A DNA stretch of 64,000 nt from an uncultured Prevotella sp. (GTDB lineage Bacteria; Bacteroidota; Bacteroidia; Bacteroidales; Bacteroidaceae): the NCBI GenBank assembly GCA_900320905.1, contig ONTZ01000007.1, positions 1 through 64,000 on the forward strand, in the 5' to 3' direction. Numbering within the stretch: the stretch's first letter is position 1; every line of letters starts with the position of its first letter. The position numbers were made by a program, and so were the translations under genes. Positions 16,907 through 54,504 of this stretch are shown here, piece by piece. The notes below the pieces were generated by a model. It searched no databases. It worked only from the letters and a program-made list of their open reading frames with translations, and was not told where the DNA came from.

Positions 16907-16970
16907 TGCAAAGGTAATAAAAAATCCGTGAAAGTCATTGCGCTTTCGCAGATTTTTTATTACCTTTGCA
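16907..16970. promoter_or_regulatory. Palindromic bidirectional hairpin promoter (GH43 / glutamine synthetase)
   Basis: TGCAAAGGTAATAAAAAATC (16907-16926) is the exact reverse complement of 16951-16970, and the stem continues inward through CGTGAAAG/CTTTCGCA (one mismatch, one wobble) to the loop TCATTGCG (16935-16942). Each end carries TACCTTTGC: -7 at 16961-16968 for the plus strand and at 16916-16909 for the minus strand. A single palindrome thus supplies both promoters. A TTG in the loop (16938-16940) lies 20 bases before the plus-strand -7 box. Confidence 0.7.
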
Positions 16971-17008
16971 GGCAACTATAACGCAAACTTCAAAACGACA
17001 ACAGAATT

Positions 17009-18514
17009 ATGGACAACAAGCACCTGACTCTTAACGCCAATCTTATTGTGGCGGCTTTGCAGAAACCGTCGGCAGAGTTTACCAAAGCCGACATCATCGA
17101 CTACATCGTCAAGAATGACATCCGCATGGTGAACTTTATGTATCCTGGCGGCGACGGAAAGTTGAAGACGCTGAACTTTGTCATCAACGATCTGGATTAT
17201 CTGGAGACCATCCTTACCTGTGGTGAGCGTGTTGATGGCAGTAGTCTATTCTCCTTCATCCAGGCCGGTAGTAGCGACCTCTATGTACTGCCCCGTTTCC
17301 GTACAGCCTTTGTCGATCCCTTTGCCGAGATCCCCACGGTGTCGCTCCTCTGCTCCTACTTCGACAAGGACGGTAACCCGTTGGAGTCTTCTCCTGAGTT
17401 CACCCTCCACAAGGCTGCTGAGGCTTTCCGTGAAGTGACGGGGATGGAATATCAGGCGATGGGCGAGTTGGAGTATTATGTCATCAGCGACGATGAGGAG
17501 GTGTTCCCGGCTCAGGACCAGCGCGGCTACCACGAGTCGGCGCCTTACGCCAAGGCCAACGAGTTCCGCACCCAGTGCATGCAAGATATCGCCCAGGCCG
17601 GCGGACAGATTAAATACGGTCATTCAGAGGTGGGCAACTTCACCATCGATGGCAAGAACTACGAGCAGAACGAGATCGAGTTCCTGCCCGTACCTGTGGA
17701 GCAGGCTGCCGACCAGTTGATGCTTGCCAAGTGGATTATCCGCAACCTCGGCTACCAGATGGGCTATGATGTGACCTTCGCCCCGAAGATCACCACTGGC
17801 AAGGCCGGCTCCGGATTGCATATCCACATGCGGATGGTGAAGGACGGCAAGAACCAGATGCTGGCCAACGGCGTGCTCTCTGAGGCTGCCCGTAAGATGA
17901 TTGCCGGTATGATGGATCTTGCACCTGCCATCACAGCCTTCGGCAATAAGAATCCGACATCGTACTTCCGTCTCGTACCCCATCAGGAGGCACCGACGAA
18001 TGTCTGTTGGGGCGACAGGAACCGCAGTGTCCTAGTTCGCGTTCCCCTCGGTTGGGCGGCAGATGTGGATATGAGTCACAAGGCCAATCCCTTGGAGACA
18101 GAAACCAGATACGACACCAGTATCAAGCAGACGGTGGAGATGCGTTCGCCAGATGGCAGTGCCGACCTGTATCAGTTGTTGGCTGGACTCTGTGTGGCTT
18201 GTCGTCACGGCTTTGAGATGGACAATGCCCTCGAACTGGCAGCCCAGACATACGTCAACGTGAATATTCACGCTGCCGAGAATGCAGACCGTCTGGCTAC
18301 GCTGGCACAGTTGCCCGACTCCTGTGTCGCCTCTGCTGCCTGTCTCGAAAAACAGCGCAAGGTCTTCGAGGAGCACAACGTCTTCTCACCCGCTATGATC
18401 GACGGCATCATAGCCCAACTCCGTGCCTTTGATGATACGACCCTCCGACAGACCATCGAGGGCTATCCCGAAGAAATCCAGAAACTTGTCACCCAGTATT
18501 TCCATTGTGGATAA
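17009..18514 (+). CDS. glnA: Glutamine synthetase (type I-like)
   Basis: 501 residues with a beta-grasp N-terminal domain (about 15-115) and a C-terminal catalytic domain. Visible signatures are GELEYYV (metal-binding glutamate), KAGSGLHIHMRM (ammonia/glutamate site and catalytic histidine), NPTSYFRLVPHQEAPTN and WGDRNRSVLVRVP (ATP/glutamate site) and MRSPDGSADLY. It makes glutamine from glutamate, ammonia and ATP. The NLYDLPPEE-type adenylylation site of enteric enzymes is not seen. It is transcribed from the palindromic promoter at 16907-16970 with a leader of about 35 bases and is followed after 6 bases by the winged-helix gene 18521. Bacteroidota often also carry a long type III enzyme elsewhere; this is not that form. 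Confidence 0.9.
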   Translation: MDNKHLTLNANLIVAALQKPSAEFTKADIIDYIVKNDIRMVNFMYPGGDGKLKTLNFVINDLDYLETILTCGERVDGSSLFSFIQAGSSDLYVLPRFRTAFVDPFAEIPTVSLLCSYFDKDGNPLESSPEFTLHKAAEAFREVTGMEYQAMGELEYYVISDDEEVFPAQDQRGYHESAPYAKANEFRTQCMQDIAQAGGQIKYGHSEVGNFTIDGKNYEQNEIEFLPVPVEQAADQLMLAKWIIRNLGYQMGYDVTFAPKITTGKAGSGLHIHMRMVKDGKNQMLANGVLSEAARKMIAGMMDLAPAITAFGNKNPTSYFRLVPHQEAPTNVCWGDRNRSVLVRVPLGWAADVDMSHKANPLETETRYDTSIKQTVEMRSPDGSADLYQLLAGLCVACRHGFEMDNALELAAQTYVNVNIHAAENADRLATLAQLPDSCVASAACLEKQRKVFEEHNVFSPAMIDGIIAQLRAFDDTTLRQTIEGYPEEIQKLVTQYFHCG

Positions 18515-18520
18515 TTTTTA

Positions 18521-19207
18521 ATGAAACAGAAGTATTTAGTCTTAGTGCTCTTAGGACTGGTTATGGTCTCTGGAGCAACAAGTTTCGGGAGTTATCAGGC
18601 CACGGAGCGGTTGGTTGAGGATGACATGAGCCAAGCCTTGGCATCGGCACTCGCAGAACAACAGAACGATGTAATCAGTGCAGATACCATCCGAGTGTTT
18701 AACAGTCATCTGCAACTGGAACAGTTGCGGGGTCATGCAGTATTGGCAGTGGATACCAGACAGAAAGGCTTCCGCTGTGAGGCAAGATGTTCTGCGGCAA
18801 CTATCTTTCTGATGTCAGACCAACGGCCAGCCTCCATATTATGGATGCTCACTTTGCTATGGGCAGGATTCTGCCTCTATAGCCATCGACGGCAAGTGCC
18901 ATTGTTGGCTGGCATGTACCAATACGGTGGATTGAATTATGCGGAATCAGAGGGGCGTTTCTATGATGCTGAGGGCAGGCAGATTAAACTAACACCCATG
19001 CAGCAGCAGTTGATGGAGATGTTCTTCCGTTCGTCCTCACACTCGCTGACGAAGACAGAGATTTGCGATGCCCTCTGGCCGAAGAAGCCTGATGCCAGCG
19101 AAACGCTCTATACCCTCATCCGTCGTGTCAAACCTATCATCGAGGCACATTCCAACCTCAGAATCGAAGTCGATAGGGGGAAAGCCTATGAACTGAGGAT
19201 TAGATAG
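18521..19207 (+). CDS. Membrane-anchored winged-helix DNA-binding protein
   Basis: 228 residues: an N-terminal membrane segment (about 5-22), an extracytoplasmic loop of about 80 residues, a second segment (about 106-122, SILWMLTLLWAGFCLYS) and a cytoplasmic C-terminal domain (about 140-228) with IKLTPMQQQLMEMFFR, LTKTEICDALWP and TLYTLIRRVKPII, which is an OmpR/PhoB-type winged helix. This is a one-component, ToxR-like layout but with the DNA-binding domain at the C-terminus. There is no receiver domain. The three TGTCAGACAA repeats only 10-40 bases after its stop codon are good candidate targets. It follows glnA by 6 bases and is probably co-transcribed. Confidence 0.75.
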   Translation: MKQKYLVLVLLGLVMVSGATSFGSYQATERLVEDDMSQALASALAEQQNDVISADTIRVFNSHLQLEQLRGHAVLAVDTRQKGFRCEARCSAATIFLMSDQRPASILWMLTLLWAGFCLYSHRRQVPLLAGMYQYGGLNYAESEGRFYDAEGRQIKLTPMQQQLMEMFFRSSSHSLTKTEICDALWPKKPDASETLYTLIRRVKPIIEAHSNLRIEVDRGKAYELRIR

Positions 19208-19216
19208 TTAGTCTGA

Positions 19217-19248
19217 TGTCAGACAATTGTCAGACAAATGTCAGACAA
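19217..19248. promoter_or_regulatory. Three TGTCAGACAA repeats at 11-bp spacing (activator/repressor sites)
   Basis: TGTCAGACAA occurs exactly at 19217, 19228 and 19239, one helical turn apart. The first copy also forms the dyad GTCTGATGTCAGAC (19211-19224). The array ends immediately upstream of the -33 element of the 19303 gene. OmpR-type winged helices usually bind direct repeats spaced one turn, matching the upstream gene. Confidence 0.65.
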
Positions 19249-19252
19249 TAAT

Positions 19253-19284
19253 TTTGCCTGATTAGGAATCTCTTCATACCTTTG
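19253..19284 (+). promoter_or_regulatory. Promoter of the 19303 gene
   Basis: TTTG (19253-19256) and TACCTTTG (19277-19284) are separated by 20 bases; the ATG is 18 bases further on. The phased repeats abut it upstream. Confidence 0.65.
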
Positions 19285-19302
19285 CAGTAAAAATTAGCAA
19301 GT

Positions 19303-19842
19303 ATGAAGAGATTTCTGTTTTTATCAATGTTGGTTTTCATTATTATCATGATATGGGTATCCGTTCATGAGAAGGAGGACGATATGCCCTTACCGCAGAA
19401 GTTGGAGCGGGCGATGCGGCTCACGCGGATGATGGAATATAAGGATTGCGACTATGGCTATAGTGTCCGCTATCCGTCGTTCTTCGAGCCCGACGACTCA
19501 CTGATGGATGGGGGTTGTTGTCGGTTCAGTTTCTGGCAGGACAGCACTGAGATCGTGCAGACGGCATTCGTGGAACATAATTCAGACAGCCTGACACTGG
19601 AGCAGTCGATGGCAAAATATGCTTCAGAACTTCATGCTACCCAACAACAGAAGGGCGATGACTTCTTCATCCTTTCAGGTCATATTCTTACTGATGACGG
19701 ACAAATCACGAGCCGTCGCTATCATGCCAAGTTCGTCATGCACCGCAAAGTCTGGTTTGTGCAGACATTAGCCTATCCCGAGGACTGTGAGCAGGCCGTC
19801 CAACGGCTTATCCGTGAGATTGATAACTGGAAGGTATGGTAA
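19303..19842 (+). CDS. Membrane-anchored hypothetical protein, 179 aa
   Basis: Starts MKRFLFLSMLVFIIIMIWVSVH, a signal anchor, followed by a polar domain with DYGYSVRYPSFFEP and FVMHRKVWFVQTLAYPED. The YGYSVRYPxxF and late V-W-F-V-Q-T patterns recall small PsbP/DUF1795-type single-domain proteins, but I cannot assign a family. It lies directly downstream of the winged-helix gene and its phased repeats, so it is the most likely target of that regulator. Confidence 0.6.
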   Translation: MKRFLFLSMLVFIIIMIWVSVHEKEDDMPLPQKLERAMRLTRMMEYKDCDYGYSVRYPSFFEPDDSLMDGGCCRFSFWQDSTEIVQTAFVEHNSDSLTLEQSMAKYASELHATQQQKGDDFFILSGHILTDDGQITSRRYHAKFVMHRKVWFVQTLAYPEDCEQAVQRLIREIDNWKVW

Positions 19843-19875: not shown

Positions 19876-19917
19876 CCACGAAAGCGCATCGACTTTCGTG
19901 GAATTTTAGTATCTTTG
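19876..19917 (+). promoter_or_regulatory. Hairpin promoter of the ATP-grasp/receiver gene
   Basis: CCACGAAAG (19876-19884) pairs with CTTTCGTGG (19893-19901) around loop CGCATCGA; AATTTT follows and leads into the -7 box TATCTTTG (19910-19917). The hairpin also fits as terminator of the 19303 gene, which ends at 19842. The ATG at 19927 leaves a leader of only a few bases. Confidence 0.6.
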
Positions 19918-19926: not shown

Positions 19927-22900
19927 ATGGAAGAAGCAAACAAGATACCACAGGAGTGGAATAAATTCTATCTGAAGGATGTGTCGTTTGTCAATATCAT
20001 GACGCGGCGCATCTTCAATGTGCTTATCGTGGCGAATCCCTACGATGCCTTTATGCTGGAGGACGATGGGCGCATCGACGAGAAGATTTTCGACGAGTAT
20101 ATGGAATTGGGTATGCGTTATCCGCCTACCTTCACGCAGGTGTCTACCACAGAAGAGGCTAATGAGGTGTTGAAGACGACGGATATCGACCTGGTGATCT
20201 GTATGCCGGGTAATGCCGACAACGATGCCTTCACTGTGGCCCGTGAGATCAAGGCGGCGCATCCGAATATCCCCTGCGTGGTGCTGACACCGTTCTCGCA
20301 CGGTATCACCAAGCGCATCGAGAATGAGGATATGTCGGTGTTCGACTATGTCTTCTGCTGGCTCGGCAATACCAATCTTATCATGTCGATCATCAAGTTG
20401 TTGGAAGACAAGATGAACATCGAGCACGACATCCGTGAGGCAGGGGTACAGATGATTCTGCTCGTGGAGGATAACATCCGGTTCTACTCCTCCGTGCTCC
20501 CTAACCTATATAATTATATATTGGCGCAGTCGAAGCGTTTCTCTACCGAGGCACTTAACCCCCACGCGGCAGCCCAGCGTAAGCGAGGTCGCCCCAAGGT
20601 GGTGCTTGCCACCAACTATGAGGAGGCGATGGAGATTTATGAGAAGTATCATGAGAACACTCTCGGTGTCATCTCCGATACCCGTTTTCCGATGCACAGT
20701 GTTCGCGGACGACTCTCGCACGTGGAAGAGGGCGACCCCGAGGCCGGACTGAAACTGCTCCGTGAAATCCGTAAGCGCGACGAATATGTACCCTTGATCC
20801 TCGACTCGAAGGAGACTCTCAACCGTGCCAAGGCCGAGGCAGAGGGTTTTCATTTCATCGACAAGAACTCCACGAAGATGAATGTCGATCTGCACCACCT
20901 GATGGAAGACCACATGGGCTTTGGCGATTTTATTTTCCGTGACCCGAAGACGAAGGAGGAGATCTTCCGTGTGTCGTCGCTGAAGGAGTTGCAGGACAAT
21001 ATCTTTAAGATTCCTAACGACTCGATGCTCTACCATGTGTCGCGCAACCACATGAGTCGTTGGCTCTGTGCCCGAGCCATCTTCCCCGTGTCGGCCTTCC
21101 TGAAGCATGTCACCTGGCATAAGTTGCAGGATGTGGATGCCCACCGTCAGATCATCTTCGATGCCATCGTGCAGTACCGAAGGATGAAGAACATCGGTGT
21201 GGTGGCAGTGTTCGACCGTCTGAAGTTCGACCATTATTCCCATTTTGCCCGTATTGGTGAGGGCTCCTTGGGAGGTAAGGGTAGGGGACTCGCCTTCCTC
21301 GACCGTATCATCAAGCGTCACCCCGAACTGAACCAGTTTGAGGGGGCTGAGGTATCAATCCCTAAGACGGTGGTACTCTGTACAGACTTCTTCGATGAGT
21401 TCATGGAGAAGAACAACCTCTATCCGATAGCCCTCAGCGATGCCCCCGACGAGGAAATCCTGAAACACTTTCTCAGGGCTCAGTTGCCTGACTCGCTGAT
21501 AGCCGACTTCTTCACCTTCTTCGATGCGGTGAAGTCGCCGATAGCCGTGCGCTCGTCGTCGCTTCTTGAGGACAGTCATTACCAACCATTTGCTGGCATC
21601 TACTCCACCTATATGATTCCTTATCTCGATGATAAGTACGAGATGCTGCGCATGCTGGCCTGCGCCATCAAGGGTGTCTATGCCTCCGTATATTACAAGG
21701 ACTCGAAGGCGTATATGTTGGCGACGCAGAACGTAATCGATCAGGAGAAGATGGCTGTGATTCTACAGGAGGTGGTGGGCAAGCGCTACGGTGACCTCTA
21801 CTATCCCAACTTCTCTGGTGTGCTCCGTTCGCTGAACTACTATCCCATCGGCGACGAGAAGGCGGAGGAAGGTATAGCCTCCCTGGCCCTCGGACTGGGT
21901 AAGTATATCGTGGATGGCGGACAGACACTCCGTGTGTCGCCCTATCACCCCACGCAGGTGCTCCAGACCTCGGAGATGGAGACGGCCCTGTCGGAGACAC
22001 AGACGCGTTTCTATGCCTTGGACATGTCACATACAGGTGCTGACTTCAAGGTGGATGACGGCTTCAATATCAAGAACCTCCGTGTGAAACAGGCCGATGC
22101 CGACGGTTCCCTGAACTATATTGCCTCCACCTATGACCCCGTAGACCAACTCATCCGCGATGGACTCTATGAGGGTGGGCGTAAGATTATCTCTTTCTGT
22201 GGGGTGCTCCAACAGGGCATCTTCCCTTTGCCTGAACTGCTCCAGATGGTACAGAAATACGGCTCTGAGGAGATGCGCCGGCCTGTGGAGATCGAACTGG
22301 CTGGTAACCTGAATGCCGACAAGACTGGTACCCTCTACCTACTCCAGATCCGTCCCATCGTCGATTCCAAGCAGGTGCTGGACGAGGACTTGCAGAAGAT
22401 TCCCGACGCCGACTGCTTGTTGCGCTCGCACAACTCCCTAGGGCATGGTATCTCGGAAGATGTCGTCGATGTGGTGTATGTCAAGGCAGGTGAGGACTTC
22501 ACCGCTGCCAACAACCCCACTATCGCCTCACATATCGAGCAGATCAATCAGAAGTTCCTCGACGGCAAGTATGTCTCTGAGGATGGCACCGTCGGCTCCA
22601 ACTATGTCTTGGTGGGGCCAGGGCGCTGGGGCTCCAGCGACTACTGGCTGGGCATCCCTGTGAAGTGGCCTCATATCTCTGCTGCCCGCGTCATCGTGGA
22701 GACGGGTTTGAAGAACTATCACGTCGATCCCTCGCAAGGTACGCACTTCTTCCAGAACCTCACCAGTTTTGGTGTCGGCTACTTCACAATCAATACCTAT
22801 ACGGGTGACGGCATCTTCCAGAAGGACATCCTTGACGCGATGCCTGCCGTTGAAGAAACCGAATACGTGCGCCACGTCCGCTTTGAGAAGCCCCTCAAGA

Positions 22901-22944
22901 TAATGATGGACGGCAAGAAGCAGACAGGCGTCGTTCTCCTGTAA
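19927..22944 (+). CDS. Dikinase-type ATP-grasp protein with two receiver-like domains
   Basis: I chose ATG 19927 because the earlier open part runs through the hairpin promoter. The 1005-residue protein has a degenerate receiver-like domain (about 30-160, NVLIVANP; no phospho-aspartate in LVICMPG), a second receiver domain (about 176-315, ILLVEDN, GVISD251TRFP, FHFIDKN with the lysine) and then a pyruvate-phosphate-dikinase/PEP-synthase-type ATP-grasp domain (about 435-880, GEGSLGGKGRGLAF, PIAVRSSSLLEDS). The phosphohistidine swivel domain and the PEP/pyruvate TIM barrel of PEP synthase are missing, so it is probably not a PEP synthase. A phosphotransfer or regulatory role is inferred. The C-terminal 100 residues (VGPGRWGSSDYWLGIPV) are conserved-looking but unassigned. 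Confidence 0.75.
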   Translation: MEEANKIPQEWNKFYLKDVSFVNIMTRRIFNVLIVANPYDAFMLEDDGRIDEKIFDEYMELGMRYPPTFTQVSTTEEANEVLKTTDIDLVICMPGNADNDAFTVAREIKAAHPNIPCVVLTPFSHGITKRIENEDMSVFDYVFCWLGNTNLIMSIIKLLEDKMNIEHDIREAGVQMILLVEDNIRFYSSVLPNLYNYILAQSKRFSTEALNPHAAAQRKRGRPKVVLATNYEEAMEIYEKYHENTLGVISDTRFPMHSVRGRLSHVEEGDPEAGLKLLREIRKRDEYVPLILDSKETLNRAKAEAEGFHFIDKNSTKMNVDLHHLMEDHMGFGDFIFRDPKTKEEIFRVSSLKELQDNIFKIPNDSMLYHVSRNHMSRWLCARAIFPVSAFLKHVTWHKLQDVDAHRQIIFDAIVQYRRMKNIGVVAVFDRLKFDHYSHFARIGEGSLGGKGRGLAFLDRIIKRHPELNQFEGAEVSIPKTVVLCTDFFDEFMEKNNLYPIALSDAPDEEILKHFLRAQLPDSLIADFFTFFDAVKSPIAVRSSSLLEDSHYQPFAGIYSTYMIPYLDDKYEMLRMLACAIKGVYASVYYKDSKAYMLATQNVIDQEKMAVILQEVVGKRYGDLYYPNFSGVLRSLNYYPIGDEKAEEGIASLALGLGKYIVDGGQTLRVSPYHPTQVLQTSEMETALSETQTRFYALDMSHTGADFKVDDGFNIKNLRVKQADADGSLNYIASTYDPVDQLIRDGLYEGGRKIISFCGVLQQGIFPLPELLQMVQKYGSEEMRRPVEIELAGNLNADKTGTLYLLQIRPIVDSKQVLDEDLQKIPDADCLLRSHNSLGHGISEDVVDVVYVKAGEDFTAANNPTIASHIEQINQKFLDGKYVSEDGTVGSNYVLVGPGRWGSSDYWLGIPVKWPHISAARVIVETGLKNYHVDPSQGTHFFQNLTSFGVGYFTINTYTGDGIFQKDILDAMPAVEETEYVRHVRFEKPLKIMMDGKKQTGVVLL

Positions 22945-23041
22945 CTCGCATTGCCTGTAACGCGTGGCGTACACCCGTTATCACACGTATTGGCTGAATA
23001 TGATGTTAAGTGGGGTGAACAACTACTTAAAGAGTTTAACA

Positions 23042-23096
23042 GAAGCGCATAACTACAAAGAATAGTTGTGCGCTTCAGTTTTTTTAGTTATCTTTG
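23042..23096 (+). promoter_or_regulatory. Hairpin promoter of the BlaI/M56 operon
   Basis: A 14-bp stem (23042-23055 with 23063-23076, one wobble; loop CAAAGAA) is followed by AGTTTTTTTAGT and the -7 box TATCTTTG (23089-23096). It can end transcription from 19927 and start that of 23148; the leader is about 45 bases. Confidence 0.6.
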
Positions 23097-23147
23097 CCGC
23101 CAGATACTGAAAACGTCATTGATGTTAAACGAACAAACAGCAACAAA

Positions 23148-23519
23148 ATGAAGAAACTAACGAATAAAGAAAGGGAAGTGATGGAGTTGTTCTGGCAGCA
23201 TGGCCCCATGTTCGTCAGGGAACTGCTCGAACATTACGAGGAACCGCGTCCACATTTCAACACGCTATCCACCATCGTCCGCCGTCTGGAGCATGAGGGC
23301 TATATCGGTCATAAACAGTATGGCTCGACTTACCAATACCATGCCCTCATCTCAGAACAAGACTACGCGAAGAGAAATATCTTCCGATTGGTAGATGACT
23401 ACATCGAGGACTCCTACAAAGGACTAGTATCTACATTTTTAAAAGAAGAGAAACTCTCCCTTGATGAACTGCGCGAATTGATTTCCCAAGTTGAAGCATA
23501 CGAAAAGGAAAAGCAATGA
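23148..23519 (+). CDS. BlaI/MecI/CopY-family transcriptional repressor
   Basis: Start taken at ATG 23148, where the family sequence begins (MKKLTNKEREVMELFWQHGP). The 123 residues hold a winged helix (about 1-75, FNTLSTIVRRLEHEGYIGHK as recognition region) and a C-terminal dimerisation helix. BlaI-type repressors are cleaved when a partner M56 membrane protease senses its signal. The next gene is such a protease, overlapping by 4 bases (ATGA). It likely represses its own operon; a dyad operator was not pinned down, though the 23042-23076 hairpin lies in the right place. Confidence 0.88.
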   Translation: MKKLTNKEREVMELFWQHGPMFVRELLEHYEEPRPHFNTLSTIVRRLEHEGYIGHKQYGSTYQYHALISEQDYAKRNIFRLVDDYIEDSYKGLVSTFLKEEKLSLDELRELISQVEAYEKEKQ

Positions 23520-26038
23520 TGACCCTGTTCCTCACCTACGAACTGAAAGTGGCTGTGCTGATAGCCGTCTTCTATATCTTCTGGCGGCTGTTGGTTGCCA
23601 ATGAGACCTGGCATCGGTTGAACCGTATCGTGCTACTCTCTACTGCTCTCGCCTCGTTTGTATTGCCGCTCTGCGTAATCACCATTCACCAGACGGTGGA
23701 AGTGATGCCCCCTGTGACAGATACGCTTCCTTTGCCGACAGACGAGACGGTTATGCCTATAGAGTCAGCCCCAATAGTGACAAACACCGAGACAGAACAG
23801 CCCTTTAATTGGCTGCTACCAGTGACCATTATATATATAATAGGTGTCGTGGTGGTGCTGTCGAAGATGCTTCTGTCGCTATGGCGTCTGTACAGGATGA
23901 GAGCCGAAAGCGAGATACATCCTTTGTCGGATGACTATCAGATAGCCGTCTGCGAGAAGGCAAAGACACCTTTCAGTTGGTGGAAGACGGTCTTCATTAA
24001 TAAAAATGATTACGAGGAAGGTACCACTGCCCTCCTGACTCATGAACTGGGACACCTCCGGCTGCATCACTCAGCCGATGTTCTCCTGGTGGAACTGCTC
24101 ACCACCCTGCAATGGTTTAACCCCGCGATGTGGATGCTCCGTGCCGACCTGCGCACCATCCACGAGTATGAGGCAGACCAGCAGGTGATCTCTCACGGAT
24201 TCAATGACATTCAGTATCTACAACTTTTAATCCGTAAGGCTGCTGGTCAGAGCGGGTACTCTCTGGCCAACGGTATTTCTAACAGTGCCCTCAAAAAACG
24301 CGTAACAATGATTATGAAACCAAAATCAAATCATAGGCAGTGGCTTCGCTATGCTTATCTGCTTCCCATCGTAGTCGTCTCGCTGGCAATGTCGGCAAGA
24401 ATCCAAAAGGATGAGGTGCTTAATTTGGGTTCCTCTGTGGAGATAGACGGTATGATGGAATCTCTCACTGATGATAATTGTCTTATTCTACTCATAGATG
24501 ATTTGGATGACTTGAAGAAAGTCGTTGCTGAGAATGGTAAAACAAGAAAAATAAAAGCAAATCTTGACTTTAATGATCATTTCACCCAAAAGGACATGGA
24601 TGGCAAGACGATTATTGTCCATCTGCCCAAGGGTTCTGTGTATGTAAACGATAAAGAGTCAAAGAAGATAGATGACGACGTTAATTACGCATTCCCCAAG
24701 GGTGGTTTTGAATGGCAACTAAACGGAGTGCCATTTGATGAGAACAATATTCCTATCCTCCACTTCAAAGCGCTTATAAAGGTTGAGAACCACTGGAATG
24801 GCAAGAAGAATGTTGCTAATCTCATCACGAGCAATGAATCTGCCATTATTCTCACTCAGAAAGACGGCCGTGAATGTATTGGTGTAAAAGTCCCTGTGGG
24901 GGCTTTTTACACCTGGCTTGTTAGTGGTCAACTGGCAGAAAGAGGAGTTGTGAAAGAAGATAAGTGGCTGAACGTGAGAAACTATTTCCCCCTGCAGGAA
25001 GACCTTGTAACACTCGATAGTAAAGAGATAGATAAAAACAATGTGCCCTATGTGCCGCTAAGCAGTATAAAGGAAGTGAAACTTATACAGGGCGAAAGGC
25101 CGCGGCGCATAGAACTCTATACTCATCATGTAACAGAATTCAACAGAGATGCAGACTTTGATTACCCTACAGAGTATAAAGAGAAAGTCAAGGCATGGAT
25201 GTTCTTCAAGGCCGAAGATGCTGCCACAGGACGACAAATGCGTGGTGTAGAGGTGACTGTTGTAGAAACGGGACAGAAGGCAAAGACCAACGAAGAAGGG
25301 TGGTGCGAGTTAAAAGTCCCTCTGGGCACTACTGTCAAAGCATCCTATCCGGGATATGAAAGCGATACCTATCAGATCAACCTTTTTAATGGCAATGAAG
25401 TACAAGGTTGGACATTCTGGATGAGCAAGCCTGGTGATAAGATATACAGAAATGTCTCCAAACAAGCAGAGTTCATCGGTGATAAGGAGCGATGGATTGC
25501 CAAGAATACTCGATTGTCGAAGGCTGCTGCTGGCGGAAAAGGCGTTTCTGGTCGTGTCACCGTCTGGTTGGTGGTCAATGAAGATGGCTCAGTCAGTGGC
25601 GTCAGACTGAAGCAAGGTTTCAACCATTGGCTGAATAATGAGGCCATCCGATTAGTGAGTTCTATGCCTCGTTGGAAACCAGCCCTCAAAGATGGCAAAC
25701 CCGTTAAAAGCCTCACCCTTACGAGCGTCTCATTTGAGAATGTTCAGGATAAAGTTTTGATAGGTACATACATTCGCGATGAGAAGTCAATGAAATACCT
25801 GAATGATGTAGATGTCTCGATAATGAGTTTGGATAGTGTGGTGTTGGCAAAACCAATGCTGCAAGAGGTATATGTCGGTTCTCAGATGTATCGCTATGTT
25901 TGGGATGTGCCCCGCCGTGATCGGTACATCATTAAAGTCTCCAAACAAGGTTACAATACAGAATACAAGACTGTTTCTATCAAAGACAATGAGTCGCAGA
26001 ATATTGCTGATGATATAATTCTCCGTCCTAAATCGTAA
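23516..26038 (+). CDS. M56 (BlaR1-like) membrane metallopeptidase with TonB-type C-terminal domain
   Basis: 840 residues. The N-terminal part has about four membrane segments and the zinc motif HELGH (176-180) with a downstream HEYEADQ providing the third ligand, typical of peptidase family M56. Residues about 290-560 form a periplasmic region without a recognised fold. This is followed by a carboxypeptidase-regulatory-like sandwich (GVEVTVVETGQKAKTNEEGW), a TonB C-terminal-like domain (GRVTVWLVVNEDGSVSGVRL to PALKDGKPV) and a second sandwich. Fusion of M56 with TonB_C domains is known in Bacteroidota. It should sense an envelope signal and inactivate the BlaI repressor encoded just upstream; no beta-lactamase gene is near. 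Confidence 0.82.
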   Translation: MMTLFLTYELKVAVLIAVFYIFWRLLVANETWHRLNRIVLLSTALASFVLPLCVITIHQTVEVMPPVTDTLPLPTDETVMPIESAPIVTNTETEQPFNWLLPVTIIYIIGVVVVLSKMLLSLWRLYRMRAESEIHPLSDDYQIAVCEKAKTPFSWWKTVFINKNDYEEGTTALLTHELGHLRLHHSADVLLVELLTTLQWFNPAMWMLRADLRTIHEYEADQQVISHGFNDIQYLQLLIRKAAGQSGYSLANGISNSALKKRVTMIMKPKSNHRQWLRYAYLLPIVVVSLAMSARIQKDEVLNLGSSVEIDGMMESLTDDNCLILLIDDLDDLKKVVAENGKTRKIKANLDFNDHFTQKDMDGKTIIVHLPKGSVYVNDKESKKIDDDVNYAFPKGGFEWQLNGVPFDENNIPILHFKALIKVENHWNGKKNVANLITSNESAIILTQKDGRECIGVKVPVGAFYTWLVSGQLAERGVVKEDKWLNVRNYFPLQEDLVTLDSKEIDKNNVPYVPLSSIKEVKLIQGERPRRIELYTHHVTEFNRDADFDYPTEYKEKVKAWMFFKAEDAATGRQMRGVEVTVVETGQKAKTNEEGWCELKVPLGTTVKASYPGYESDTYQINLFNGNEVQGWTFWMSKPGDKIYRNVSKQAEFIGDKERWIAKNTRLSKAAAGGKGVSGRVTVWLVVNEDGSVSGVRLKQGFNHWLNNEAIRLVSSMPRWKPALKDGKPVKSLTLTSVSFENVQDKVLIGTYIRDEKSMKYLNDVDVSIMSLDSVVLAKPMLQEVYVGSQMYRYVWDVPRRDRYIIKVSKQGYNTEYKTVSIKDNESQNIADDIILRPKS

Positions 26039-26059
26039 TCTATTTGCAATAACTCAGAT

Positions 26060-26115
26060 GCAAACTATTTGCAAACTCCGATAGTGATGAATTATTGGAT
26101 TTTTTTGTACCTTTG
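26060..26115 (+). promoter_or_regulatory. Hairpin promoter (weak copy) of the TPR regulator gene
   Basis: A 27-base block (26060-26086, GCAAACTATTTGCAAACTCC plus GATAGTG) is repeated exactly at 27701-27727. Here the hairpin partner is degraded (CCGATAG with TTATTGG, pairing only with G.U wobbles) but the T-tract and -7 box TACCTTTG (26108-26115) remain. The ATG at 26122 leaves almost no leader. Confidence 0.55.
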
Positions 26116-26121
26116 CGCCCA

Positions 26122-27696
26122 ATGAAGAAAATAATACTCATTTGGGGGTGTATAATGACTGTGACGATGATAGTCGGTTGTCAGAACTACGGCAACAAAC
26201 ACTATTATCATGAACTGGAGAAGATAGACCATCGTCAGAACCGTGAACTGGCCAGACATGAGATTATGGCTTTGAAGAACGAAGTGGCTTCTTATCCTGA
26301 CTACATTAGAATGTATCATCAGTTGCTCGTTGCAGAACTGAACGAAGAGGTGATGCCTTACAGGAATATGGAAGTGGCGAGAGCACTCATTGACTACTAC
26401 GAAAACAACAATGATCGTGATAAATTGATTCGCAGTTATATCATCGCCGGACATATATTTGCCAACAACAATGATGGTCCCAAGGCGCTTTCATATTATT
26501 ATAAGGCCGAAGAACTGCTGGATGGTTATAACAATGCAGAACTGCTGAACCGTCTTTATGCCAAGATGGCTTATCTGTTTCTTCACCATAATATGCCAGA
26601 ACAGGCCAGAGTCTATGCCACTCGTTCACAGAACTATAGTTATCACAAGAAGGATACACTTGGTATGATTAAGGCATTGCGGTGTATCAGTGAGACCTAT
26701 AAACAGGTGCCAGGAAATGAACTGACTAATCTTGAAGAAGCCTATCAACTGGCCAAGCAATCCAGACGATACGACCAGCAGAAAGAACTGATGATAGACA
26801 TTGCAAGTTGCTGCAGTCATAATGAGCATTATCATTTGGCACTGAATTATCTTCGTCCTCTGATGAATATAAAAGATCATCGTGCGGATGCACTGTTGGG
26901 TAAGGCCTATTATCATATAGGCAAGGAAGACTCCGCATTCTTCTTTGCGCAGCGGGCTTTGGAGAAAGGCAACTCCATCAGCAAGCGCGATGCCCATGAA
27001 GTGCTTGCTTATTTGGCTATCCGGCAAGGTCAGCGTGATAGCGCAGAAGAGCACTTTTCAAAATACAAGGAACTGAATGATGCCCTGAATAGAATCCAGA
27101 ACAGCGAGGCTATCGCACAGATGGATGCCTTCTATCATAATCAGAAGCAGGCTGAAGAAAATGCCAGATTAAGGTTTGACAATAGCCACAAGCAGAACAT
27201 GATTGTTATCGTGATAGCCTGTCTCATAGTACTGATCATCCTCTTTGGCACATACGTTCAGCGCCATCGACGCAAGCAGGAATTGATGGCATTACGCATC
27301 CAGCAGTTGGAAGAGTTCAAGCAGGCTTACGAAAAGACAGATGAGAGCGAACGCAACCAGACGGAACAAAGCATACGCCAGACAGTCATATATCAGCACC
27401 TGGTCATGATGCAAGAGCCAGAACATCCTATTGATACCGACTGGCAAGCATTGGCCGATGCCATTAATCAGGTTTACCCTCAGTTTACGCCTCGTCTGCT
27501 AAGCCTTTGCAGGATGACAACCCACGAATATCATGTTTGTCTTTTGTTGAAAGCTGGTTTTGAACCTATCCGCATTGCCACTCTTACCCTTCGTAGTAAG
27601 GCTGCCGTCTCTACCGTCCGCAGCCGTCTTTATGAGAAAGCCTTCGGCAAGAAAGGTAGTGCCAAAGACTGGGACGAGGTCATCCGAACACTCTAA
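26122..27696 (+). CDS. TPR lipoprotein-type membrane regulator with C-terminal HTH
   Basis: ATG 26122 starts a lipoprotein-like signal (lipobox IVGC) and gives 524 residues. TPR-type helical pairs fill about 80-330 (e.g. DGPKALSYYYKAEELLDGY), a membrane segment lies near 362-382 (MIVIVIACLIVLIILFG) and the cytoplasmic tail carries a coiled region and a LuxR-like helix-turn-helix (about 455-515, TTHEYHVCLLLKAGFEPIRI then VSTVRSRLYEK). This periplasmic TPR / membrane / cytoplasmic HTH layout is common in Bacteroidota. It probably reads out the envelope state and controls the neighbouring genes, from which it is separated by two related hairpin promoters. Confidence 0.75.
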   Translation: MKKIILIWGCIMTVTMIVGCQNYGNKHYYHELEKIDHRQNRELARHEIMALKNEVASYPDYIRMYHQLLVAELNEEVMPYRNMEVARALIDYYENNNDRDKLIRSYIIAGHIFANNNDGPKALSYYYKAEELLDGYNNAELLNRLYAKMAYLFLHHNMPEQARVYATRSQNYSYHKKDTLGMIKALRCISETYKQVPGNELTNLEEAYQLAKQSRRYDQQKELMIDIASCCSHNEHYHLALNYLRPLMNIKDHRADALLGKAYYHIGKEDSAFFFAQRALEKGNSISKRDAHEVLAYLAIRQGQRDSAEEHFSKYKELNDALNRIQNSEAIAQMDAFYHNQKQAEENARLRFDNSHKQNMIVIVIACLIVLIILFGTYVQRHRRKQELMALRIQQLEEFKQAYEKTDESERNQTEQSIRQTVIYQHLVMMQEPEHPIDTDWQALADAINQVYPQFTPRLLSLCRMTTHEYHVCLLLKAGFEPIRIATLTLRSKAAVSTVRSRLYEKAFGKKGSAKDWDEVIRTL

Positions 27697-27700
27697 AAAA

Positions 27701-27757
27701 GCAAACTATTTGCAAACTCCGATAGTGTCGGGCTATCGGAGTTTTTTCATACCTTTG
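27701..27757 (+). promoter_or_regulatory. Hairpin promoter of the GLPGLI operon
   Basis: ACTCCGATAG (27716-27725) pairs perfectly with CTATCGGAGT (27733-27742) around TGTCGGG; six T follow and the -7 box TACCTTTG lies at 27750-27757. It stands 4 bases after the stop of the TPR regulator and shares 27 bases exactly with 26060-26086. Confidence 0.65.
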
Positions 27758-27782
27758 CACTCTGAACAATAAATCTCTCTTT

Positions 27783-28709
27783 ATGTATAAACTACAAACA
27801 ATGTTCGTCCTCGCCTTGCTGACAGTTCTGCTGCCAGCGACGGGGACTTCCTGCTCACCGCAGACACAAAGGAAAACGCAACAGAAGGCTTCTGATCATG
27901 CATTACTGTCAGTAACTTATGAGACGATTCGCCAGATGACAGAGGAAGACACGAGGAAAACAAAAGATCTGATGCGTCTCGATATCGGCAGCCATGCCTC
28001 GCAGTTTCGTAGCGTCATCATCGAGTGGGTGCTGGATAAAGGTTTGGTCTATGGCAGTCCTACCAGTCTCAACCATCCTTTTACGGGTTACAAGTGGCAG
28101 CATGAGCAGGTGGTGAAAAATCTACCAAAGGCAGGTTACCTCTATTTTACTCACGACCGTATATCTACACGCGACAAGATAGAGGGGCTGTTTGACTGGA
28201 AATTATGTAAAGGCGAGAAAACCATCTGTGGCTATCCTTGTAAAAAGGCAACGGCAACTTTTCGAGGACGGACATGGACAGCATGGTATGCACCATCATT
28301 GCCTTATAGTGATGGACCTTGGAAACTGGGCGGACTGCCAGGTGTCATCCTCGAAGCCGCTGAAGCGGAAGGTAAGATTACCTTTCGTTGTAAGAAAGTG
28401 GAGCGGGATACAGGCTATGGTATAGTGTTGGTCAAGCATAATAGCACACCTATGCTTCGCATGGAATCTGATGTGCTTGACGTTTATAGCCCACAACGAG
28501 CAGCAGAATTGCTGATGTTGGAACAGTGGGACCAGATTGCATTTTCTGATGTAATGATGAATACACATGGAATCAAAGGCGACAAAACAAATTATGTTGT
28601 AAAGGATGGCAAGAGAATAAGCATTCCATCTAATCAGACGGCAGTCCTTTACGAGTATTTTTCAGACATTGACATGACAGAACAGTATCCACCAACTATT
28701 GTAAAATAG
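27783..28709 (+). CDS. GLPGLI-family secreted protein
   Basis: 308 residues with a signal peptide (possible lipobox GTSC) and, in the second half, GPWKLGGLPGVILEA, the family signature, preceded by TWTAWYAPSLPYSDGPW. GLPGLI proteins are exported proteins of Bacteroidota of unknown biochemical role, often near outer-membrane receptors. It starts a unit with a TlpA-like and a TPR protein (15 bases to 28724). Confidence 0.85.
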   Translation: MYKLQTMFVLALLTVLLPATGTSCSPQTQRKTQQKASDHALLSVTYETIRQMTEEDTRKTKDLMRLDIGSHASQFRSVIIEWVLDKGLVYGSPTSLNHPFTGYKWQHEQVVKNLPKAGYLYFTHDRISTRDKIEGLFDWKLCKGEKTICGYPCKKATATFRGRTWTAWYAPSLPYSDGPWKLGGLPGVILEAAEAEGKITFRCKKVERDTGYGIVLVKHNSTPMLRMESDVLDVYSPQRAAELLMLEQWDQIAFSDVMMNTHGIKGDKTNYVVKDGKRISIPSNQTAVLYEYFSDIDMTEQYPPTIVK

Positions 28710-28723
28710 TAAGACAAAGAAAT

Positions 28724-29986
28724 ATGAAACGATTGAAGACAATTTTTTTAGGGCTGATACTCACAATGAGCGTCAATGCCCAGGACGGACGGTTTGCTAT
28801 TACGCTGAGGGTTGACTCGGCCATTGCCAGCGAATCACAGAAGGTCTATCTTTATTCACAGATCGAAAAGCAAATGCACTTACACGACTCACTGAACATT
28901 GACTCTGTGCATCGTGTAGGTACCTTGCATGGGTCTGTGCCATACGAATATGCTGTTCACCTGATGTTCGCCCGCAGAGGACCAGGTGTGGTGCCAGTAG
29001 TAGTGAAGAATGGTGACAGCATCACTGTACATGTAGGTGATGAAGACGACGGCTTTCGTCTGCGCTATCCTAGAAATACAGATGGGTCGCCAGCCATGCA
29101 TGAATACGTGAACTACTACTTGATGCAGGATAGCCTTGACCATCAACGTACGAAGGTTTGGTTGCAGATGCAACTGGTAGGATTGCCTGAGACAAAGAAA
29201 GATTCGCTCAAAACGCACTATGACGTACTTGTCCGCGAAATAGAACACAGTAAGGAACTTTTCGCCATGAATGCCAGATATCCCTATGCCGCTATGGGTG
29301 TAGGAGGCAGCATCTACAGCAACTACAAGTGGAGTCCGACGACTCATACTTATAAGGAAGAGGTCGTAGATTCCATCATGAACTCACTTATTCAGCGTTT
29401 CCCTGACTATCCGCCTATCCGTGCCCTCGTTAATGACAGCACCCTCGGAGATTATATGTCGGCAGAAAGTTTCGCAACTAATACATTACTCTGGAAACGC
29501 TATAGTAGCCGCTTCTACGATAGCGAATTAGACTCTATAGTCCGTCCGCTAAAGGTGGGCGATTACTTCAACATCCTCGGCCTGAATGAATACCGCGGAC
29601 AATACGTCTATGTTGATTTTTGGGCCTCATGGTGTCAGCCCTGCCTGATGCAGATGCCCAACATCAAACAGGCTGCCCAGATGTTTTCTAAAGATTTGAT
29701 GGTTCACCTGATTTCTATCGACAAATCAGGTAAAGAGTGGTGGAGTGCCGTGAAGGAACATGACTTACGAAATCACTTGGAAGGCGAACAACCCTATCAG
29801 ATTCACAATAGGCGAGCCTACGATGAGAAGGGAAAAATGAATGCAGATGTCCGCTCTCTCGGCATCAAGACCATCCCTCACAACTATCTCATTGACCGCT
29901 CAGGACGCATCATTGCCAAGAATATCTCTGGTGCCATGCTCATCGATAAAATGCAACAACTATTAGAAAAGGAGAAACAACAATGA
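28724..29986 (+). CDS. TlpA-like periplasmic thiol-disulfide oxidoreductase
   Basis: 420 residues: signal peptide, a DUF4369-like N-terminal region without clear motif, and a C-terminal thioredoxin fold (about 275-420) with FWASWCQPCLMQMP (CxxC near 304-307) and a cis-proline motif TIPHNYLIDRSG. It should reduce or isomerise disulfides of exported proteins. Its stop overlaps the next start by 4 bases. Confidence 0.85.
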   Translation: MKRLKTIFLGLILTMSVNAQDGRFAITLRVDSAIASESQKVYLYSQIEKQMHLHDSLNIDSVHRVGTLHGSVPYEYAVHLMFARRGPGVVPVVVKNGDSITVHVGDEDDGFRLRYPRNTDGSPAMHEYVNYYLMQDSLDHQRTKVWLQMQLVGLPETKKDSLKTHYDVLVREIEHSKELFAMNARYPYAAMGVGGSIYSNYKWSPTTHTYKEEVVDSIMNSLIQRFPDYPPIRALVNDSTLGDYMSAESFATNTLLWKRYSSRFYDSELDSIVRPLKVGDYFNILGLNEYRGQYVYVDFWASWCQPCLMQMPNIKQAAQMFSKDLMVHLISIDKSGKEWWSAVKEHDLRNHLEGEQPYQIHNRRAYDEKGKMNADVRSLGIKTIPHNYLIDRSGRIIAKNISGAMLIDKMQQLLEKEKQQ

Positions 29987-42902: not shown

Positions 42903-42940
42903 AGGTAGGTAGGGCGCATTGCATCATCCTCTGAACTTTA

Positions 42941-42984
42941 ATCCCCGAAACATTTGGCTGTTTCGGGGATTTTTCGTATCTTTG
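42941..42984 (+). promoter_or_regulatory. Hairpin promoter of the PIG-L gene
   Basis: ATCCCCGAAACA (42941-42952) pairs perfectly with TGTTTCGGGGAT (42959-42970), loop TTTGGC; TTTT follows and the -7 box TATCTTTG is at 42977-42984. The TTGG inside the loop is a correctly spaced -33 candidate (19 bases). Confidence 0.65.
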
Positions 42985-43005
42985 CCCCATCAAAACCTAT
43001 ACGAT

Positions 43006-52421: not shown

Positions 52422-52458
52422 TGCGCGTTATTATACCAGAAACTGGGGGTAAAGAAAA

Positions 52459-52488
52459 ATGAGAGTATGCCAATCGGCATACCCTCAT
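52459..52488 (+). terminator. Intrinsic terminator of the DUF4419/serpin operon
   Basis: ATGAG.GTATGCC (52459-52471) pairs with GGCATAC.CTCAT (52476-52488), one mismatch, loop AATC. The following T-run is poor (TTAAGG), so termination may be partial. Confidence 0.5.
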
Positions 52489-52543
52489 TAAGGCTTACTC
52501 GTCAGGTTCCTCTAGGTTAGGTCGAAAATAGTAATATATAAAA

Positions 52544-52594
52544 CCCTGACTTAACCCTGACTTAACCCTGAGGTAGTCCTGAGGTAGTCCTGTG
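52544..52594. repeat. Five tandem 11-bp repeats
   Basis: Units begin at 52544, 52555, 52566, 52577 and 52588 (CCCTGACTTAA twice, CCCTGAGGTAG, TCCTGAGGTAG, TCCTGTG). The 11-bp period equals one helical turn; the array lies about 80 bases upstream of the next promoter. Confidence 0.5.
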
Positions 52595-52670
52595 TCGCTT
52601 CTACCGTTCATTGATGCCGCATAGATAATCAAAAATTTTCAAACTGCCGTTATTTTTTTTGTCTGATTTC

Positions 52671-52701
52671 TTGGTAGTCTCATATTTTTTTTTTATCTTT
52701 G
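52671..52701 (+). promoter_or_regulatory. Promoter of the hydrolase-HAD gene
   Basis: TTGG (52671-52674) and TATCTTTG (52694-52701) with a 19-base spacer that includes nine T. The ATG at 52715 gives a leader of only about 8 bases. Confidence 0.65.
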
Positions 52702-52714
52702 CGCCATCATATTG

Positions 52715-53713: not shown

Positions 53714-53737
53714 GGAACTAATATAGTAATTTATAAT

Positions 53738-54442
53738 ATGTCTAACTCTTTAAAAAAACAAATGACAATGAAAAAGTATTTTGCTGAAATGGTGGGCACT
53801 ATGGTGCTTGTGTTGATGGGCTGCGGTGTGGCCGTGAGTCTGGGTTGTGATCCTGTAAACAACATTCCCGCTGTGGTTGGTACGGCTTTTGCCTTCGGAC
53901 TGGCAGTGGTGGCAATGGCTTATACCATCGGTGGTATCAGCGGCTGTCATATCAATCCCGCCATCACACTGGGTTGCTTCCTCAGCGGTCGTATGAGCAG
54001 TAAGGATTGTGGTATGTATATGCTCTTCCAGGTGATTGGCGCTTTCATTGGCTCACTGTTGTTATACATCCTCACCGAGAATGTTCCGGGTCTCGATGGT
54101 ACTGGTGCCAATGATTTGCAGGCCAATGTGAGTATGCTGGGCGGACTCCTGGCAGAGATTATATTCACCTGTGTGTTTGTGCTCGTGGTATTAGGTGCTA
54201 CCGCCAAGACTAACGGGGCTACTAATAATTTCGCAGGTCTCGCCATCGGGCTGTCGCTTATCCTGGTTCATCTGGTCTGCATCCGTTACACTGGTACATC
54301 AGTTAACCCTGCCCGTTCCATCGCTCCCGCTATCTTCGAGGGCGGCACAGCACTGACTAACCTATGGATATTCATCATCGGTCCGTTTGTGGGCGGTGCA
54401 CTGGCTGCTGGTATCTGGAAAGTCATCGATACGGAAAAGTAG
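53738..54442 (+). CDS. Aquaporin (MIP family)
   Basis: 234 residues, six membrane segments and the two half-helix motifs: CHINPAITLG (first NPA) and TGTSVNPARSIAPA (second NPA, with the selectivity-filter arginine). It passes water and possibly small neutral solutes across the inner membrane. AqpZ-like length and short loops suggest a water channel rather than a glycerol channel. ATGs at 53762 and 53768 (MKKYFAEMVGTM) are alternative starts; the first ATG adds 10 residues before the usual family beginning. Confidence 0.9.
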   Translation: MSNSLKKQMTMKKYFAEMVGTMVLVLMGCGVAVSLGCDPVNNIPAVVGTAFAFGLAVVAMAYTIGGISGCHINPAITLGCFLSGRMSSKDCGMYMLFQVIGAFIGSLLLYILTENVPGLDGTGANDLQANVSMLGGLLAEIIFTCVFVLVVLGATAKTNGATNNFAGLAIGLSLILVHLVCIRYTGTSVNPARSIAPAIFEGGTALTNLWIFIIGPFVGGALAAGIWKVIDTEK

Positions 54443-54454
54443 TAGTTGGAAAAC

Positions 54455-54504
54455 AAAAAATCCCCGAAAGTTGATTGGCTTTCGGGGATTTTTTAGTAAC
54501 TTTG
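54455..54504 (+). promoter_or_regulatory. Hairpin promoter of the TolC/efflux operon
   Basis: AAAAAATCCCCGAAAG (54455-54470) pairs perfectly with CTTTCGGGGATTTTTT (54479-54494), loop TTGATTGG. The -7 box TAACTTTG is at 54497-54504, directly after the T-tract. It can terminate the aquaporin gene and, in the other direction, also has A/T tracts on both sides. Confidence 0.7.

What the first reader, a model, noticed from the sequence alone, without database searches (positions are those of the whole stretch)
16907..54504. A family of hairpin promoters: terminator stem, T-tract and -7 box fused in one element
At 16907-16970, 19876-19917, 23042-23096, 27701-27757, 42941-42984 and 54455-54504 (and weakly 26060-26115) a stem of 9-20 bp with a 6-8 base loop and a T-tract runs directly into a TAnnTTTG -7 box within about 10 bases. 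Several stems share (C)CCGAAAG-loop-CTTTCGG(G), which suggests a common origin. In three of them a TTG or TTGG lies in the loop at the correct distance (18-20) for a -33 element. One element could end the upstream transcript and start the next, and a cruciform would expose or hide the -33. Seen directly: stems, tracts and -7 boxes. Inferred: common origin and function.
Basis: partly seen in the sequence, partly recalled or inferred. Interest (0 to 1): 0.75.

Follow-up and report, generated by a model that had tools for sequence, protein, structure and literature searches.

The report
Terminator hairpins with promoters built in
In rumen Prevotella, short DNA hairpins that follow one gene run straight into, and often hold in their loop, the promoter motifs of the next gene, so that one element of about 50 bases is predicted to end one RNA and start the next.

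Summary
Hairpin, T-tract and TAnnTTTG box are present at all seven sites, beyond chance: at least 199 of 200 shuffles fold worse, and T-runs 5-10 nt before a box carry hairpins in 23 of 183 cases (shuffled mean 0.5). The spacing is locked. In 249 genus genomes, with 0-30 nt allowed between ATCC...GGATTTTT hairpins and the box, 111 of 126 listed hairpins have a gap of 2-5 nt. The loop centre lies 21.7 +/- 1.1 nt before the box, where ordinary promoters here carry the -33 TTG. Fused loops hold TTG in 45 and its reverse complement CAA in 7 of 77; unfused terminators 39 and 40 of 183. Stems vary in sequence. 23 of 25 parsed sites follow a co-directional stop codon. Best reading: an intrinsic terminator folded around the -33 element, its T-tract doubling as promoter spacer. 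Termination, initiation and polymerase hand-over are inferred; no RNA data were available. Copies by descent are shown for orthologues and one window pair only. A cruciform switch has no support. The window is a local cluster; a complete genome of the same genus showed no excess.

The parts
16902..16975 (.). Divergent hairpin promoter between the GH43 gene (minus) and the glutamine-synthetase gene (plus); 33-nt arms, -7 boxes on both strands (16961-16968 plus; 16916-16909 minus), TTG 16938-16940 in the loop
19859..19918 (+). Hairpin 19876-19901, T-tract, -7 box 19910-19917; minus-strand -7 box at 19867-19860; upstream stop codon ends at 19842
23038..23097 (+). Hairpin 23042-23076, T7 tract, -7 box 23089-23096; TTG 23066-23068 in the 3' arm; upstream stop ends at 22944
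26060..26115 (+). Weak hairpin 26077-26099, T7 tract, -7 box 26108-26115; sister copy of the 27701 element; upstream stop ends at 26038
27701..27757 (+). Hairpin 27714-27744, T-tract, -7 box 27750-27757; upstream stop ends at 27696
42940..42985 (+). Hairpin 42940-42971 with TTTGG in the loop (TTG 42954-42956), T5, -7 box 42977-42984; before a glucosamine-6-phosphate-deaminase-like gene; upstream stop ends at 42902
54455..54505 (+). Hairpin 54455-54494 with TTG 54475-54477 in the loop, T6, -7 box 54497-54504; before a TolC-like gene; upstream MIP-family gene ends at 54442

Best explanation
These are composite elements of about 50 bases in which a terminator-like hairpin is centred on the -33 position of the next gene's promoter motifs, and they likely end the upstream transcript and start the downstream one. 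Shown by sequence: in the genus set the loop centre coincides with the -33 position, TTG is enriched there on the coding strand only, the T-tract ends a few nt before the TAnnTTTG -7 box, and most parsed sites follow a co-directional stop codon. Inferred: RNA polymerase from the upstream gene releases its RNA in the T-tract, right at the -7 box; sigma-ABfr holoenzyme then uses TTG (-33) and TAnnTTTG (-7), with the 3' arm and T-tract as spacer. The loop is the one stretch of the terminator free of pairing constraint, so it is where a -33 element can sit; this would explain the fixed spacing. At gdhA and glnA the promoter is the more constant part and the hairpin comes and goes, so the terminator is probably built on to an existing promoter. 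It would insulate neighbours where genes are tightly packed. The divergent 16907 site is an exception, where the palindrome is probably a by-product of arm copying or a shared control site.
For: Phase lock: 33 hairpins with T-run start 5-10 nt before the box against 4 at 11-19 nt in the 80 related loci (orthologues included); 17 of 54 head-to-tail junctions fused against 4.45 expected for uniform placement, 0 of 20000 simulations as high; 111 of 126 listed hairpins (76 of 91 deduplicated) at gap 2-5 when 0-30 was allowed. Real hairpins: 66 of 71 ATCC...GGATTTTT matches have at least 4 of 5 further pairs against 23% with permuted arms. -33 in the loop: TTG 45, CAA 7, TTGG 25, CCAA 1 of 77 fused; 39, 40, 11, 9 of 183 unfused, a set from the loci found by another scan (p 1.5e-8 for TTG); 33 of 39 TTGs at spacer 18-21 fully unpaired. 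Fused elements have TTG at spacer 18-21 about as often as ordinary promoters (9 of 22 and 116 of 334) and more often than unfused terminators (21 of 183, p 0.001). Stability near that of other terminators: median -15.5 and -16.6 kcal/mol. Position: 23 of 25 parsed sites follow a co-directional gene, stop to stem 5-232 nt, median 32. Pairing kept through change: C-G to T-A on both sides at 42941 between the window and L014/L257; 24 gdhA promoters, covariation score 0.331 against 0.230 shuffled (0 of 500 as high) and 0.08-0.21 slid.
Against: No RNA end was mapped. Three of seven window sites lack TTG at the spacing, and at 23042 it is paired. 16907 sits between divergent genes; two of 25 sites also have a minus-strand gene upstream, and two of the co-directional ones have a minus-strand gene downstream. 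In 340 kb of the complete genome G117 2 of 68 T-hairpins are fused, against 7 at 17-40 nt, so no excess; in other families 1 of 87 hairpins in 740 kb, and among their 14 pattern-found fused hairpins outside G709 only one has TTG at spacer 18-21. Ordinary promoters here are T-rich at -3 to -7, so part of the phase lock comes from promoter composition: 13 of 24 non-hairpin matches also have gap 2-5, though hairpins have more (p 0.0003). Hairpin frequency at T-runs 5-10 nt before a box (23 of 183) is not significantly above that at 11-20 nt (6 of 73, p 0.39). Same-type promoters without hairpin have TTG nearly as often (10 of 26 against 15 of 28): the TTG shows promoter function, not termination. 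At gdhA the number of pairs changed on both sides (6) is within the shuffles (mean 4.7; 91 of 500), and the structure counted was taken from some of the same sequences.
Confidence: 0.75

Rival explanations
1. Compaction and shared composition only: promoters here are T-rich before the -7 box and genes are close, so terminators fall next to promoters without any joint design.
For: T 0.5-0.7 at -3 to -7 in 334 unfused promoters; 13 of 24 non-hairpin matches share the gap; G117 shows no excess; no significant difference between 5-10 and 11-20 nt.
Against: Uniform placement predicts 4.45 fused of 54, 17 seen; hairpins are more phase-locked than non-hairpins; the loop TTG/CAA asymmetry is absent from unfused terminators.
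Confidence: 0.12
2. A dispersed repeat (REP- or MITE-like cassette) that spreads a ready-made terminator-promoter.
For: 26060/27701 are an 85% identical 47-nt pair; G000 has 8 copies of CGGGGATTTTTNNTANNTTTG, and 9 of 60 genus genomes (G000 included) have any; L218/L219 are a duplicated pair, and L216 and L212 share a short CTCTAAG-like stretch before the stem (by eye).
Against: 44 hairpins and 77 fused ones remain after removal of similar copies; by eye the other flanks are unlike; a genome of another family has its own stems.
Confidence: 0.06
3. A palindromic operator: a regulator binds the inverted repeat over the -33 and controls the promoter.
For: At gdhA a palindrome is centred on or covers the -33 in 18 of 24 aligned orthologues, imperfect in some (by eye); 16907 cannot be a terminator for either neighbour.
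Against: No common half-site seen among the many stems (by eye); the parsed sites mostly follow co-directional stop codons.
Confidence: 0.05
4. A supercoiling-driven DNA cruciform hides or exposes the -33.
For: Arms of 9-33 nt at the window sites; G119 has a perfect 27-bp inverted repeat at glnA (letters, L173).
Against: 18 of 22 arms are 9-14 bp, and short arms rarely extrude (general knowledge, not tested); the TTG would lie in the loop, unpaired, in the cruciform.
Confidence: 0.02

Closest known systems
Bacterial intrinsic (Rho-independent) terminator
   Same: Stable stem, short loop, T-tract, placed after a stop codon
   Different: Loop and T-tract also serve the next gene's promoter; loop sequence is strand-biased to TTG(G), unlike unfused terminators
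Sigma-ABfr promoter of Bacteroidetes (-7 TAnnTTTG, -33 TTTG; PMC7366714, passages and section 8 read)
   Same: Same boxes; TTG with a 19-20 nt spacer in 111 of 334 ordinary promoters here
   Different: The spacer and upstream region form a terminator-like hairpin centred on the -33
RNA polymerase recycling at E. coli terminators (PMC6978380, abstract and Discussion read; PMC11347151, abstract and two sections read)
   Same: Terminator beside a downstream promoter; those papers report reinitiation by retained polymerase in vitro
   Different: There 85% of 371 E. coli termination sites lie within 1000 bp of a start; here the two signals overlap. Recycling in Prevotella is untested
E. coli frd/ampC junction (recalled, no call)
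   Same: A terminator and a promoter of neighbouring operons share DNA
   Different: As recalled, that terminator lies downstream of the ampC start and acts as attenuator; here it lies upstream of the start
Terminator stems made of DNA uptake sequences (only a title seen, in the reference list shown; rest recalled)
   Same: A terminator hairpin serving a second code
   Different: The second code there is a repeated stem word; here it is the loop

Membership tests
Intrinsic terminator | Stable RNA stem followed by a T-run | tested here: met
   All seven window folds beat at least 199 of 200 shuffles; 26060 is weak
Intrinsic terminator | Lies downstream of a co-directional gene | tested here: met
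   Six of seven window sites (coordinates; five of the junctions printed); 23 of 25 parsed related sites. Not met at 16907
Intrinsic terminator | RNA 3' ends in the T-run | not testable with these tools
   No RNA data
Sigma-ABfr promoter | TAnnTTTG -7 box | tested here: met
   Seven of seven
Sigma-ABfr promoter | -33 TTG at the usual spacing | tested here: inconclusive
   Four of seven in the window; 39 of 77 fused elements at spacer 18-21, against 116 of 334 ordinary promoters: as good as ordinary promoters as a set, absent at three window sites
Sigma-ABfr promoter | Transcription start 4-8 nt after the box | not testable with these tools
   No RNA data
Recycling terminator-promoter pair | Promoter within polymerase sliding range of the terminator | tested here: met
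   The signals overlap
Recycling terminator-promoter pair | Polymerase kept on DNA and restarted | not testable with these tools
   Needs single-molecule or in vitro transcription
Dispersed repeat family | Copies alike beyond stem and box | tested here: not met
   By eye unlike flanks except L218/L219 and a short stretch in L216/L212; 26060/27701 is the one window pair found (region 22900-28800 only)
Palindromic operator family | Common half-site sequence | tested here: not met
   77 dissimilar fused hairpins after deduplication; CGAAA stems recur but are not general

The most novel reading that the evidence does not exclude
A polymerase-relay element: the polymerase that ends the upstream operon releases its RNA while standing on the downstream promoter, stays on the DNA and restarts there, so neighbouring operons are coupled without sharing an RNA. 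The loop-borne -33 is the docking point, and the design has arisen repeatedly, in rumen Prevotella and at least one other family of the order.
Probability: 0.2. Interest if true: 0.88.

Novelty: new variant of a known kind. Interest (0 to 1): 0.6.

Why it matters
If the dual role holds, two transcription codes are read from the same DNA, a hairpin in RNA and a promoter in DNA, kept compatible by placing the -33 motif in the unpaired loop. Terminator and promoter finders that treat the two apart would misplace operon ends in these genomes. The overlap also gives a natural test bed, at the shortest distance, for the open question whether terminating polymerases restart at the next promoter in cells, and it would be a compact insulated promoter part.

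Tried and rejected
Common origin: examined through flanks and stem diversity; rejected as a general cause. Rfam: no family reached its threshold in the window. tRNAs: none found. A covariance model was planned from alignments A1 and A2 but not built, because pattern scans gave a cleaner test of spacing. Arm length does not differ between fused and unfused (p 0.57), so shorter stems are not the reason for the loop position. First hairpin scans measured distance from the last G/C of the stem and were replaced by a T-run measure, because stems extending through the T-tract were misplaced. 16907 is not listed by the scan, probably through its C-A mismatch, and is judged. Literature: searches (open-licence library only; two returned nothing) listed no paper that by title or abstract start concerns a bacterial terminator with a promoter element in its loop; most hits were seen as listings only. 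One search was for template switching. PMC9723704 and PMC3636130 were read as passages, PMC8794818 as abstract and opening.

Counts and rows dropped: the 80 related loci were fetched through one gene, so its promoter recurs; one search cut 41 fused sites to 22 by similarity. One search cut 3047 T-runs to 2525. The list was truncated: 150 rows were listed and used. From I used only the 67 rows of other genera; 57 rows of other families (not deduplicated), leaving out seven rows of G000 and three overlapping duplicates. One search looked at the 30 fetched loci's 71 rows; 27 parsed, 25 with a determinable upstream gene (ORF calls only). One gdhA promoter of the 25 printed (L075, cut short) was left out of the alignment. 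Fisher tests used counts typed in.
Full report
WHAT WAS CHECKED. The window lies in a 3.2-Mb, 118-contig genome, 81.9% complete. The named records with the closest copies of its PPDK_N-domain gene are rumen Prevotella, Prevotellaceae and Xylanibacter ruminicola. At each of the seven places a stem, a T-tract and a TAnnTTTG box follow one another. As RNA the stems fold with z-scores of -3.2 to -7.2. The genes around them look ordinary: GH43, glutamine synthetase, a PPDK_N-domain protein, a penicillinase-repressor-family and a weakly BlaR1-like protein, a glucosamine-6-phosphate-deaminase-like protein, an aquaporin-family (MIP) and a TolC-like protein (the BlaR1 and TolC matches are below NCBI's cut-offs). 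Six sites follow a co-directional stop codon; 16907 lies between divergent genes.

MORE THAN CHANCE? In the window plus 80 related loci (1.5 Mb) I compared T-runs in DNA outside called genes. Those starting 5-10 nt before a TAnnTTTG box carry a hairpin in 23 of 183 cases, those with no box within 60 nt in 90 of 1950 (p 8e-5), and dinucleotide-shuffled upstream DNA in a mean of 0.5 of 183. The contrast with T-runs 11-20 nt before a box (6 of 73) is not significant. In one search the start of the T-run lies 5-10 nt before the box in 33 hairpins and 11-19 nt before it in 4. Among 54 deduplicated head-to-tail junctions with both signals, 17 are fused, where uniform placement predicts 4.45 (0 of 20000 simulations reach 17); of 7 divergent regions none is. 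The stated refutation, stems no commoner before promoters than in shuffled DNA, is not met.

THE PROMOTER CODE. In 334 deduplicated ordinary promoters of these loci TTG stands 20 nt before the -7 box in 26% and 19 nt in 7%; T-rich positions lie at -3 to -7, and TTTC at -16 to -13. Fused elements have a like profile: TTTC near that place in 8 of 22, against 60 of 334 ordinary promoters and 9 of 183 unfused terminators. So part of the shared CTTTCGG arm may be imposed by the promoter spacer; that step is inference.

GENUS-WIDE TEST. The pattern ATCCN{20,28}GGATTTTTNNTANNTTTG fixes only the outer four pairs. It gave 71 rows in 48 of 249 genus genomes, with one hit for the reversed control. 66 of the 71 have at least 4 of the next 5 positions paired, against 23% when arms are permuted. 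With the gap to the box freed to 0-30 nt (150 rows listed, list truncated), 126 rows are hairpins. Their gap is 2-5 nt in 111; after deduplication 76 of 91, with 12 spread over 13-27 nt. Non-hairpin rows also favour 2-5 (13 of 24), but less (p 0.0003). The loop centre of the 77 fused elements (gap up to 6) lies 21.7 +/- 1.07 nt before the box, the centre of the TTG of ordinary promoters. Fused loops, with two bases on each side, hold TTG in 45 and CAA in 7 of 77, TTGG in 25 and CCAA in 1; in 183 unfused terminators, from the loci and another scan, the numbers are 39, 40, 11 and 9. A terminator loop has no evident reason to prefer one strand's TTG; a -33 element has. Where TTG lies at spacer 18-21 (39 of 77), it is fully unpaired in 33. 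Promoters of the same GGATTTTT type without hairpin have TTG in 10 of 26, those with hairpin in 15 of 28, so the TTG marks the promoter, whether or not a hairpin surrounds it.

BREADTH. In other genera of the family 67 rows hold 52 hairpins, 38 after deduplication, 23 of these at gap 2-5; of 25 fused, 12 hold TTG and 3 CAA in the inner part. In other families of the order 57 rows hold 32 hairpins, 16 at gap 2-5. One genome there (G709) has five, all with TTG at spacer 20; of the other 14 at gap 0-6 only one has TTG at 18-21. Unselected stretches give a more sober picture: 2 of 68 T-hairpins fused in 340 kb of the complete genome G117, with 7 at 17-40 nt, and 1 of 87 in 740 kb of other families. 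The trait is uneven, and the window (6 of 12) is richer than 330 kb of its own genome elsewhere (2 of 45).

HOW IT EVOLVES. Twenty-four gdhA promoters from the related loci align over 53 columns without a gap. TTGG or TTTG at spacer 20 and TAnnTTTGC stay, while around them stand two different palindromes or none (forms judged by eye). Pairs of the first palindrome covary (score 0.331, shuffled 0.230, slid 0.08-0.21), although the number of pairs changed on both sides is within the shuffles. At glnA, of 30 upstream regions printed, only G000 and G119 show the hairpin over the -33; L174, L178 and L179, for example, keep TTG at spacer 20 and the -7 box without it, and several others show no box in the printed stretch. 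Between G000 and G119 the A- and T-tracts changed together (six and six, five and five), and G119's arms are perfect over 27 bp including both -7 boxes. Copying of one arm from the other by template switching would explain this; that process is published for RNA hairpins (PMC8794818, abstract), but its action here is inference. At 42941 a C-G pair in the window is T-A in L014 and L257 while the loop is unchanged. 26060 and 27701 are sister copies, 85% identical over 47 nt, bracketing one gene; the 26060 copy pairs less well.

MECHANISM. Shown: the geometry, the strand-biased loop TTG, pairing kept through sequence change, stability near that of other terminators (median -15.5 against -16.6 kcal/mol), and a place after a co-directional stop codon in 23 of 25 parsed sites. 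Inferred: termination in the T-tract, initiation after the -7 box, and insulation as the benefit. A further inference is the relay: E. coli polymerase stays on DNA after most intrinsic terminations in vitro and can restart nearby (PMC6978380, abstract and Discussion), and 85% of 371 E. coli termination sites lie within 1000 bp of a start (PMC11347151, section 16). Here the release point would lie on the promoter itself. I give that 0.2.

NOVELTY. Terminators and sigma-ABfr promoters are known; searches of the open-licence library listed no paper that by title or abstract start describes the -33 element in a terminator loop; subscription journals are largely missing there. The frd/ampC overlap of E. 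coli is recalled, not read. I call it a new variant of a known kind.

Noticed in passing
L018:3682-3734, L081:6370-6422, L073:1964-2016 and 21 other loci (strands as): gdhA promoters keep TTGG/TTTG and the -7 box while the palindrome over the -33 takes two forms or is absent; in one form the -7 box TATTTTTG itself is the T-run.
   Followed up: partly
window 26060-26106 and 27701-27747: 47-nt direct repeat, 85% identical, of a whole terminator-promoter bracketing one gene (26122-27696).
   Followed up: partly
L173 (G119) and window 16902-16975: Perfect 27-bp inverted repeat in G119 holding both divergent -7 boxes; A5/T5 there, A6/T6 in the window, as if the arms changed together.
   Followed up: partly
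L001, L008, L010, L009 near position 1501: CCCGAAAG hairpins of which three share a flank like CTAAGAGTAGTGG(G)CC and the fourth a related one, perhaps a dispersed repeat of this genome.
   Followed up: no
e.g. G297 C72, G482 C107, G510 C61, G410 C28, G346 C209, G451 C53: One fused element with stem ATCCGCTACTT...AGTAACGGAT recurs nearly unchanged across several genera, perhaps carried by a mobile or very conserved gene.
   Followed up: no
e.g. G000 C24:3413, G235 C170, G252 C50, G237 C5, G535 C9: A recurrent fused element with a stem like ATCCTCCGTATC...GATATGGAGGAT and no loop TTG, probably orthologous; gene not identified.
   Followed up: no
window 2553-2618: 25-nt inverted repeat, 92% complementary, G+C-rich arms with a 16-nt loop.
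   Followed up: no
window 9296-9348: A+T-rich palindromic stretch directly before a minus-strand -7 box at 9301.
   Followed up: no
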